Positions 1,298 to 7,008 of a stretch of 64,000 nucleotides of DNA are shown in pieces. Origin of the DNA: Candidatus Poribacteria bacterium (GTDB lineage Bacteria > Poribacteria > WGA-4E > PCPOR2b); contig JAJECO010000044.1 in the NCBI GenBank assembly GCA_022822005.1, positions 1 through 64,000 on the forward strand. Direction: 5' to 3'. Under the pieces are notes generated by a model that had not been told where the DNA came from, made no database searches, and saw nothing but the letters and a program-made list of their open reading frames with translations. Numbering within the stretch: the first letter of the stretch is position 1; each line of letters begins with the position of its first letter. The position numbers and the translations under genes were made by a program.

Positions 1298-3397
1298 ATG
1301 CCAACAGATCGCGATCTTATTCATCAAACGCTCAAAGGCGATTCCCAGGCTTTTGATACCCTCGTCCAGAAATATCAGCCGGTGATTTATTCCCAGGCGC
1401 AGCTTCTTGTACGGAATCCGCAGGATGCCGAAGATCTAACACAAGAAGTATTTATCAAGGCGTATCAAAACCTTCCAAAACTGCGCGATGCCAATCGTTT
1501 CGCCGGTTGGCTATCACAAATTGCGAAGAACGTCTGCGTGACATGGATCCATCGGCAGAAAGGAATGTCAAAATCTTGCCAGACTGACGGGGATCCAATT
1601 TTGGGGCTATCTTCTGTTGAAGCAACGCCAGAACAATTCTTGATAAAAAAAGAATTGAGCCAGACGATCTTGAAGGCGATTGATTCGCTGTCGACTACGG
1701 ATGCGGCAGTTGCGCACGATTTCTACATTGATGATCTTAGTTATGATGAAATCTCAGAGAGACACGGGTTGTCGCGTCGTGCCATCGCAAGCCGACTGCA
1801 CCGTGGTAAACAACGCATTGCTGAGAAGGTCAAGCGTTCCTTCAGCGCATTTGGTGTTTTCTGGAAATGCTGGGAGACAGCCATACTAAAGGGGATGAAA
1901 ATTATGTCAACCGTTGCGCGTTCTTGGTCTATTTCTTTTGTAATCCATCTGTGTTTTGCTGCTATCGTTGGGATGTATCTGGTGAGTCAAAGCCAATCAT
2001 TCAAGGATTTGATGGGTGTTGAAATTTTTCAACCAGCGAATCCGCCGCCTAAACCGCAAGTTCGGAAACCGGTTATCAAACCCATTCAAAAGCCAGAGAC
2101 ACAGGTTGAAGACATGGTCGAGGTTGAACCAGTTAAAACCCAATCGAGGGCAACGAGTGCGCTTGTCGTTCGGCGAGCTACTGTACAACAGAGGAACGTA
2201 TCCGCGTTTTCAAATCAAGCGTTGAAACTCAATGCTCCTGTCAACGCTAATGTGCCGAAAGTAGTCAGCCCCCATGCCCTTGTGCATCAAGTCGTAACAC
2301 ATACAGATGTCCCTGTTTCTGATGCGCCCGATGCGTTGGCATTGTCTTCACCCACCATTGCAGGTACAAACGGCGGGCGTATGAGTTATCGGATTGGGGG
2401 TGGCGATCGTGGGATTTCTGAAGGTGCTGTACAGGTTAGGATCGCTAATCTGTTTAGGTTGCCGTCGGAGCTTACGATGGTCAAGGAGGTTGGAGCCGCT
2501 CGAGATGCCTTGGATGAGGTGGTTGATGACATTATACTCGGTAATCTTGAAGTGCTGCCCCTACCTCGCGGTGAACCGGGAGGCCGTGTTGTTGGTAAGG
2601 GGCGCGATATTCGTGGGATCCTCCGGGTCACTCGTGTCCGTCACAGTCTCTCGGACTGGTGGGCTGATCCTTCTGCGCTGAACGCGTGGACAAAGTGGAT
2701 GAACGCAAAGACAAGGATTAAAACAGACATGAACGTCGAAGGTGGACCGCTCAAGTTCACCGATGCGAACCTACATAAAGCTCCTTTGCTTTTCATGACG
2801 GGCCATGATCCCGCACTTGCCCGGTCCGTGATGGGTCGTTCGGGGAGTAGAGATAAATTGGATAATCGCTTGTCTGAAGCCGAAGCGATGGGGTTACGTC
2901 GATATCTGGTTGAAAAGGGTGGTCTCCTTCTCTTTGACGATTGTGGCACGAACGCACCAGCGCAGGCGATGATTCGGCGGTTCCTCGCTCAGATGCGTAT
3001 AGTTATGCCTGAATATCATGTAACTCGAATTCGAAATGACCATGAGATATATAGCATCTTCTACAAGATGGGTGGGCCGCCAACTGGATTCGATCTGTGG
3101 TGGTCGGGAGCTATCCCACCGGGTGGGAACCATATCGAAGGAATTTTTATTAGTGACAAGATTTCCGTCTTAGTAATCCGTCGCGATTATATGTGTGCGA
3201 TGGAGTCCATCAGTGTGCCAAGCCGTCCTACGCAATACTCGCCGAGCGTCTACCGTTTTATGACCAACGTTGCCATTTACGCGCTAACACGTGGTAAAAT
3301 TTCAGATTACTCCGGTTATGTGCCAGAGGATAAGTTAGGGCATCAAAGATTTCCGAGCCGTGCACCACAAGCCGCCACAATCGGCGCGGTGGAATAG
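1298..3397 (+). CDS. ECF sigma factor fused to TM segment, proline-rich linker and DUF4159 domain (paralogue A)
   Basis: A 699-residue fusion. Residues ~5-195 are a complete ECF sigma-70 factor: region 2 (FDTLVQKYQPVIYSQAQ, DAEDLTQEVFIKAYQNL, FAGWLSQIAKN) and region 4 (DLSYDEISERHGLSRRAIAS). Residues ~205-230 form one hydrophobic helix (SWSISFVIHLCFAAIVGMYL). A TonB-like proline/lysine linker follows (PPPKPQVRKPVIKPIQKP), then a DUF4159 domain (about 440-660) with GHDPAL, LRRYLVEKGGLLLFDD and LEGIFI-like segments. DUF4159 has no established biochemical role. The ATG at 1298 is preferred over an upstream TTG at 1241 because AGGAAA precedes it and the paralogue at 4780 begins identically. An AAGGGG sits 9 nt before an internal ATG (1904) just upstream of the TM helix, so a separate membrane product is possible. 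As one chain it would be a membrane-tethered sigma factor. Confidence 0.85.
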   Translation: MPTDRDLIHQTLKGDSQAFDTLVQKYQPVIYSQAQLLVRNPQDAEDLTQEVFIKAYQNLPKLRDANRFAGWLSQIAKNVCVTWIHRQKGMSKSCQTDGDPILGLSSVEATPEQFLIKKELSQTILKAIDSLSTTDAAVAHDFYIDDLSYDEISERHGLSRRAIASRLHRGKQRIAEKVKRSFSAFGVFWKCWETAILKGMKIMSTVARSWSISFVIHLCFAAIVGMYLVSQSQSFKDLMGVEIFQPANPPPKPQVRKPVIKPIQKPETQVEDMVEVEPVKTQSRATSALVVRRATVQQRNVSAFSNQALKLNAPVNANVPKVVSPHALVHQVVTHTDVPVSDAPDALALSSPTIAGTNGGRMSYRIGGGDRGISEGAVQVRIANLFRLPSELTMVKEVGAARDALDEVVDDIILGNLEVLPLPRGEPGGRVVGKGRDIRGILRVTRVRHSLSDWWADPSALNAWTKWMNAKTRIKTDMNVEGGPLKFTDANLHKAPLLFMTGHDPALARSVMGRSGSRDKLDNRLSEAEAMGLRRYLVEKGGLLLFDDCGTNAPAQAMIRRFLAQMRIVMPEYHVTRIRNDHEIYSIFYKMGGPPTGFDLWWSGAIPPGGNHIEGIFISDKISVLVIRRDYMCAMESISVPSRPTQYSPSVYRFMTNVAIYALTRGKISDYSGYVPEDKLGHQRFPSRAPQAATIGAVE

Positions 3398-7008: not shown

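What the first reader, a model, noticed from the sequence alone, without database searches (positions are those of the whole stretch)
1298..7008. Complete ECF sigma factors fused in one chain to a TM helix, TonB-like linker and DUF4159 domain
Two genes encode sigma regions 2 and 4, then one TM helix, then an extracytoplasmic DUF4159 domain. A sigma factor covalently tied to a periplasmic domain would replace the usual separate anti-sigma partner: one-chain transmembrane signalling, perhaps released by proteolysis. Both copies keep their frames, arguing for function. The fusion is seen directly; the mechanism is inference.
Basis: partly seen in the sequence, partly recalled or inferred. Interest (0 to 1): 0.75.

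Follow-up and report, generated by a model that had tools for sequence, protein, structure and literature searches.

The report
Sigma factor tethered through the membrane
In a genus of uncultured Poribacteria, a gene-switching sigma factor is made as one chain with a membrane-crossing TonB-like arm and an outer-facing DUF4159 domain, so a signal outside the membrane could act directly on transcription; the general layout is known from a few other bacteria, but this combination appears to be new.

Summary
Two intact ORFs (1298-3397, 4780-7008) encode ECF sigma regions 2 and 4, one TM helix, a Pro-rich linker and DUF4159, each domain above Pfam's cut-off. Fused orthologs occur in four congeners (one interrupted by an assembly gap, one by an in-frame TGA) and in none of 79 Poribacteria of other genera searched. 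Sigma (dN/dS 0.13-0.15) and DUF4159 are under purifying selection, so this is no artefact. The genome has many other sigma-TM fusions with different tails, and the sigma tree nests this one inside that clade: DUF4159 is one tail of a modular system. The TM helix belongs to the DUF4159 partner and carries TonB's S-x3-H motif (His in 81/81 distinct helices). Best model: an IutY/SCO4117-like membrane-held sigma released by proteolysis, possibly also ExbBD-coupled. An internal ribosome site at the copy-1 junction may add a sigma-less product. Unexpectedly, sister DUF4159 genes carry an in-frame TGA where copy 2 has Cys; constrained downstream codons, a SECIS-like hairpin and selA/selB/tRNA-Sec point to selenocysteine, including in one sigma-fused ortholog. 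New variant of a known kind; the mechanism is inferred.

The parts
1298..3397 (+). Copy 1: sigma2-sigma4-TM-linker-DUF4159, 699 aa from ATG 1298
   Evidence: orthologs; dN/dS
1361..1561 (+). Copy 1 sigma-70 region 2
   Evidence: (PF04542, 60.3 bits)
1670..1819 (+). Copy 1 sigma-70 region 4
   Evidence: PF08281, 36.4 bits
1888..1906 (+). Copy 1 junction: AAAGGGG followed by in-frame ATG 1895 and ATG 1904, aligned with the start region of sigma-less paralogs; possible internal translation start
   Evidence: suggestive only
1931..1987 (+). Copy 1 TM helix with TonB-type Ser (1934-1936) x3 His (1946-1948)
1988..2554 (+). Copy 1 Pro-rich, predicted disordered linker
   Evidence: sequence; low pLDDT
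2627..3286 (+). Copy 1 DUF4159
4780..7008 (+). Copy 2: sigma2-sigma4-TM-linker-DUF4159, 742 aa; DUF4159 of a different subfamily from copy 1
4843..5043 (+). Copy 2 sigma-70 region 2
5146..5292 (+). Copy 2 sigma-70 region 4
5413..5469 (+). Copy 2 TM helix with Ser-x3-His (His 5428-5430)
6193..6195 (+). Copy 2 Cys codon TGT at the position that is TGA in sister genes
6439..6894 (+). Copy 2 DUF4159 (strongest part)
7291..8844 (+). Copy 3: TM-linker-DUF4159 without sigma (ATG 7291; listed as ORF 7270-8844)
24173..25795 (-). Copy 4: sigma-less TM-linker-DUF4159 with one in-frame TGA at 24995-24997 (probable selenocysteine)
24951..24968 (-). SECIS-like hairpin with GGUC loop downstream of the TGA
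   Evidence: published limits in PMC13188914

Best explanation
Each gene encodes a membrane-held ECF sigma factor. The sigma2-sigma4 module lies in the cytoplasm, one N-in/C-out TM helix crosses the inner membrane, and a Pro-rich arm carries DUF4159 in the periplasm. The tether keeps sigma from working until DUF4159 receives a signal; a periplasmic cut followed by site-2 cleavage then frees sigma to bind RNA polymerase. TM and arm come from a TonB-like, probably ExbBD-contacting transducer family that normally exists without sigma; the sigma half comes from ECFs that already carried TM tails, so the fusion arose in this genus by tail exchange. Shown: architecture, conservation, selection, modular relationships, S-x3-H helix, S2P and ExbBD genes in the genome. 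Inferred: topology, sequestration, cleavage, ExbBD coupling, signal.
For: Domains in one frame. Fused orthologs in congeners. Sigma dN/dS 0.13-0.15. Sigma clade (100/99) nested in a supported clade in which 35 of 42 rows have TM tails. His in 81 of 81 and Ser in 74 of 82 distinct TM regions. ExbB-ExbD-ExbD genes and M50 proteases in the genome. Same plan as IutY, released by Prc and RseP (PMC5411451), and as ECF52 SCO4117 (PMC8999054).
Against: No experiment; no recognised anti-sigma domain in the junction; sigma has decayed upstream of sister TM-DUF4159 copies, so the outer part works without it; M50 proteases are near universal and ExbBD is not adjacent; the Leu and Ser of the full SHLS motif are not conserved.
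Confidence: 0.55

Rival explanations
1. Dual-product gene: besides the full-length chain, ribosomes start at the sigma/TM junction and make a sigma-less TM-DUF4159 protein, as if two genes had merged by loss of the stop between them. The sigma-less form would compete or assemble with the tethered sigma. Compatible with the best explanation for copy 1.
For: AAAGGGG-ATG-AAA-ATT-ATG at the copy-1 junction aligns with the start region of sigma-less paralogs. Shine-Dalgarno-like plus in-frame start pairs are enriched at junctions of sigma-TM fusions: 13 in 672 codons versus 43 in 10004 elsewhere in the same ORFs and 1.4 per 1000 in other window genes. A sigma-PurC ORF in two species has the same site.
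Against: Paralogs are not independent; GGA codons there may reflect descent and the Gly-Gly-x-Thr-x-Met-Lys sequence; some members have lost the site; copy 2 has no such site.
Confidence: 0.3
2. Sigma stays on the membrane and works or is switched there without cleavage: the signal, or force from an ExbBD motor through the S-x3-H helix, changes its access to RNA polymerase.
For: TonB-type helix; ExbBD, TonB_C and plug genes in the genome.
Against: No known sigma factor is driven this way; the two best-studied single-chain relatives (IutY shown, SCO4117 modelled) are explained by proteolysis.
Confidence: 0.12
3. The sigma part is a passive or decaying passenger, or the fusion is an assembly artefact.
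For: Sigma has decayed in sister copies; many genomes here are metagenome-assembled.
Against: Same fusion in assemblies of several species with strong purifying selection on sigma.
Confidence: 0.03

Closest known systems
Pseudomonas putida IutY (ECF243 hybrid sigma/anti-sigma)
   Same: Cytosolic ECF sigma, one TM segment and a periplasmic domain in one chain; released by Prc and RseP (PMC5411451, PMC8999054).
   Different: IutY's outer domain is a cell-surface-signalling anti-sigma domain working with the receptor IutA; here it is DUF4159 on a long Pro-rich arm with a TonB-type helix.
ECF48/52/53, e.g. Streptomyces coelicolor SCO4117
   Same: Sigma fused to TM and, in SCO4117, an extracytoplasmic Pro-rich region plus C-terminal domain (PMC8999054).
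   Different: Those have a cytoplasmic zinc-finger anti-sigma domain and, in SCO4117, a carbohydrate-binding domain; neither was found here.
ECFs with other C-terminal extensions (ECF41, ECF42, ECF57 etc.)
   Same: Sigma2-sigma4 with varied regulatory tails; the window's genome has tails with WD40, ankyrin repeats and carboxypeptidase-regulatory-like/redoxin domains.
   Different: No DUF4159 tail was found described; DUF4159 occurs in no paper of the searched library.
TonB/TolA force transducers and the proposed vWA transducers
   Same: N-terminal TM helix with Ser-x3-His, disordered or Pro-rich arm, globular periplasmic domain (PMC12204202, PMC12215075).
   Different: The end domain is DUF4159, not TonB_C or vWA, and a sigma factor precedes the helix.

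Membership tests
ECF (group 4) sigma factor | Regions 2 and 4 present and complete | tested here: met
ECF (group 4) sigma factor | Directs RNA polymerase to specific promoters | not testable with these tools
   no promoter could be assigned
IutY-type hybrid (ECF243) | Sigma, one TM and periplasmic domain in one chain | tested here: met
   IutY layout
IutY-type hybrid (ECF243) | FecR-like cell-surface-signalling anti-sigma periplasmic domain | tested here: not met
   Pfam scan gives DUF4159 only in the outer part
IutY-type hybrid (ECF243) | Release by Prc and RseP | not testable with these tools
   M50 proteases present
ECF48/52/53 | Cytoplasmic zinc-finger anti-sigma domain between sigma and TM | tested here: not met
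   junction of about 30 residues, no Pfam hit
TonB/TolA-type transducer | Ser-x3-His in the TM helix | tested here: met
TonB/TolA-type transducer | Leu and Ser of the full SHLS motif | tested here: not met
   position +7 and +11 after His are not Leu and Ser (sequences)
TonB/TolA-type transducer | TonB_C end domain | tested here: not met
   DUF4159 instead
TonB/TolA-type transducer | Works with an ExbBD/TolQR motor | not testable with these tools
   ExbB-ExbD-ExbD genes on another contig
DUF4159 (PF13709) | Profile above cut-off and matching fold | tested here: met
Selenoprotein (copy 4 and the G004 fusion, not copies 1 and 2) | In-frame TGA aligned with Cys, with constrained codons after it | tested here: met
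Selenoprotein (copy 4 and the G004 fusion, not copies 1 and 2) | Bacterial SECIS just downstream | tested here: inconclusive
   loop, stem, spacing and energy fit published limits, but energy is not unusual against shuffles
Selenoprotein (copy 4 and the G004 fusion, not copies 1 and 2) | selA, selB and tRNA-Sec in the genome | tested here: met
   own genome G000; not tested in G004; selD not tested

The most novel reading that the evidence does not exclude
A sigma factor is covalently coupled, through a proton-motive-force-linked TonB-type helix, to a periplasmic DUF4159 domain whose reactive residue is Cys (copy 2) or selenocysteine (the G004 ortholog). It would be a one-chain redox-to-transcription switch across the inner membrane and, in one species, a sigma factor that is itself a selenoprotein.
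Probability: 0.25. Interest if true: 0.85.

Novelty: new variant of a known kind. Interest (0 to 1): 0.6.

Why it matters
Single-chain transmembrane sigma factors are known from very few studied cases. This genus shows how they may evolve: one sigma-TM chassis with exchangeable outer domains, here joined to a TonB-like transducer. If ExbBD coupling or selenocysteine is confirmed, proton motive force or periplasmic redox state would be linked to RNA polymerase in one polypeptide, and DUF4159, a domain of unknown function, would get a testable role.

Tried and rejected
Frameshift or missed stop as cause of the fusion: rejected by intact orthologs and dN/dS. I first took copy 4 (24173-25921) and the G004 fusion for frameshifted genes: wrong, each has a single in-frame TGA at the same site. 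Gene-neighbour link between stand-alone DUF4159 genes and ECF genes: ten loci have an ECF gene shortly downstream, all apparently one orthologous locus, and the other loci outside the genus have none, so weak. Sigma-PurC ORF as proof of internal starts: a second, stand-alone purC exists, so not decisive. Conservation of the internal start site in relatives: present in most but not all members and confounded by amino-acid conservation. Full-length model poor (pLDDT 56, pTM 0.43), not used for contacts between domains. Folding energy after the TGA is not unusual against shuffles; the selenocysteine case rests on the TGA/Cys pairing, selection and machinery. No promoter could be assigned from seven aligned upstream regions. 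A planctomycete ECF paper was not held.

Full report
OBSERVATION. The two ORFs are real. Copy 1 runs from ATG 1298 to 3397, copy 2 from ATG 4780 to 7008. Pfam finds sigma-70 region 2, region 4 and DUF4159 above the curated cut-off in both; NCBIfam's ECF model scores 93 and 96 bits against a cut-off of 42.9. One hydrophobic helix lies between sigma4 and a Pro-rich stretch. The predicted fold of copy 1's DUF4159 (pLDDT 80) matches the solved DUF4159 protein 4i66.

GENOME AND RELATIVES. Named relatives are almost all 'Candidatus Poribacteria' MAGs; the window's own genome is 6.0 Mb in 97 contigs and 98% complete. TM-linker-DUF4159 proteins without sigma occur on five other contigs, and relatives matching this part occur in all 59 close genomes searched. 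Chains with sigma were found only in the window's genus: G000, G002, G003, G004, and G005 where an assembly gap interrupts the sigma part. A junction-spanning query over 85 genomes of the phylum found no fusion in the 79 genomes of other genera or in the congener G001.

SELECTION AND ORIGIN. Between G000 and G003 the sigma part has dN/dS 0.13 (copy 1) and 0.15 (copy 2), and 0.15 between copies 1 and 2; DUF4159 gives 0.07-0.23 between orthologs. Copies 1 and 2 are about 80% identical through sigma and TM but mostly about 30% through DUF4159: one sigma-TM module on two old DUF4159 subfamilies. The genome holds 41 sigma-region-2 hits, many in long ORFs; tails include WD40, carboxypeptidase-regulatory-like plus redoxin, ankyrin and a large family without Pfam match. 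In a sigma tree the DUF4159-linked clade (100/99) lies in a supported 42-row clade (99/95) in which 35 rows carry TM tails. I infer tail exchange: a TM-extended ECF acquired the TM-linker-DUF4159 part. Loss also occurs: G005 copy B and G004 C12 keep only a region-4 remnant upstream of TM-DUF4159; G004 C12 also shows a frame change in its linker.

THE TM HELIX IS TONB-LIKE. Of 82 distinct sequences, 81 have a TM, and all 81 have the His; Ser stands four residues before it in 74. His217 is invariant and Ser213 nearly so in a 24-row alignment. TonB and TolA contact ExbB and TolQ through this Ser-x3-His (PMC12215075), and transducers with such a helix, a disordered arm and an unrelated end domain have been proposed (PMC12204202). 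The Leu and Ser of the full SHLS motif are not conserved here. The genome has an ExbB-ExbD-ExbD cluster on another contig, three TonB_C hits and 14 plug domains. Coupling to ExbBD is plausible, not shown.

MECHANISM. Sigma-TM-periplasmic domain is the layout of IutY, in which Prc and RseP release the sigma part (PMC5411451); ECF52 SCO4117 has a Pro-rich outer tail and a binding domain (PMC8999054). I judge release by proteolysis most likely (0.55). The junction of about 30 residues has no anti-sigma domain, so inhibition would be by tethering or by the tail. M50 proteases exist but are near universal.

A SECOND PRODUCT? At the copy-1 junction AAAGGGG-ATG-AAA-ATT-ATG aligns with the start region of sigma-less paralogs. 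Such pairs of Shine-Dalgarno-like sequence and in-frame start are enriched at sigma-TM junctions in this genome: 13 in 672 codons, 43 in 10004 elsewhere in the same ORFs, 1.4 per 1000 in other window genes. The counts are not independent, some members have lost the site and copy 2 has none. A sigma-less product from copy 1 is possible (0.3).

SELENOCYSTEINE. Copy 4 (24173-25795, minus strand) looked broken but has one in-frame TGA at 24995-24997. The same TGA is in the G003 counterpart and in the G004 sigma-TM-DUF4159 fusion; copy 2 in G000 and G003 has TGT (Cys) there. The 273 codons after it are open and constrained (dN/dS 0.11-0.19). A hairpin with a GGUC loop 33 nt after the TGA fits published bacterial SECIS limits, though its energy is not exceptional against shuffles. 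The window's genome has selA, selB and tRNA-Sec side by side. Read through, copy 4 and the G004 fusion keep their expected domains. A 2026 review of prokaryotic selenoproteins mentions neither DUF4159 nor sigma factors in its main text (PMC13188914). I put real selenocysteine at about 0.8; incorporation is not shown. Sec/Cys pairs usually mark redox-active sites (established knowledge; PMC1088965), which would make copy 2's outer domain a candidate redox sensor; copy 1's subfamily has a different sequence there.

VERDICT. A real, selected, genus-level innovation and a new variant of the single-chain transmembrane ECF sigma factor. Mechanism, TonB-type coupling and redox reading are testable inferences.

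Noticed in passing
window 24173-25795 (-), TGA 24995-24997; L232:10231-11976; L082:5466-7676: Candidate new selenoprotein family: DUF4159 genes with an in-frame TGA where copy 2 has Cys, including one sigma-fused ortholog (G004); selA-selB-tRNA-Sec cluster at G000:C78 (L231).
   Followed up: partly
L029:2148-3650, L190:1441-3000: ECF sigma fused directly to a SAICAR synthetase (PurC) in two species, with AGGAGG and in-frame ATG at the junction in L029; a stand-alone purC also exists in G000.
   Followed up: partly
L030, L031, L035, L036, L037, L039 junctions: AGGAGG-like sequence plus in-frame start at the sigma/TM junction of several unrelated sigma-TM fusions.
   Followed up: partly
window 58145-62605 (+): The rpoB ORF holds an extra stretch with HNH-nuclease-like motifs (...WKCEQCGIDL...HAHHVKG...LCIGCH...); Pfam gives no HNH hit at E 0.01.
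   Followed up: partly
window 3554-4567; L079:8758-13971; L082:1003-5253: Tandem TolB-like beta-propeller genes lie directly upstream of copy 2 and its orthologs; possible partners or targets.
   Followed up: no
L095, L096, L099, L100, L101, L105, L106, L109, L121, L153: In other genera a stand-alone TM-DUF4159 gene is followed on the same strand by a long ECF gene (TPR and redoxin tail in L096).
   Followed up: partly
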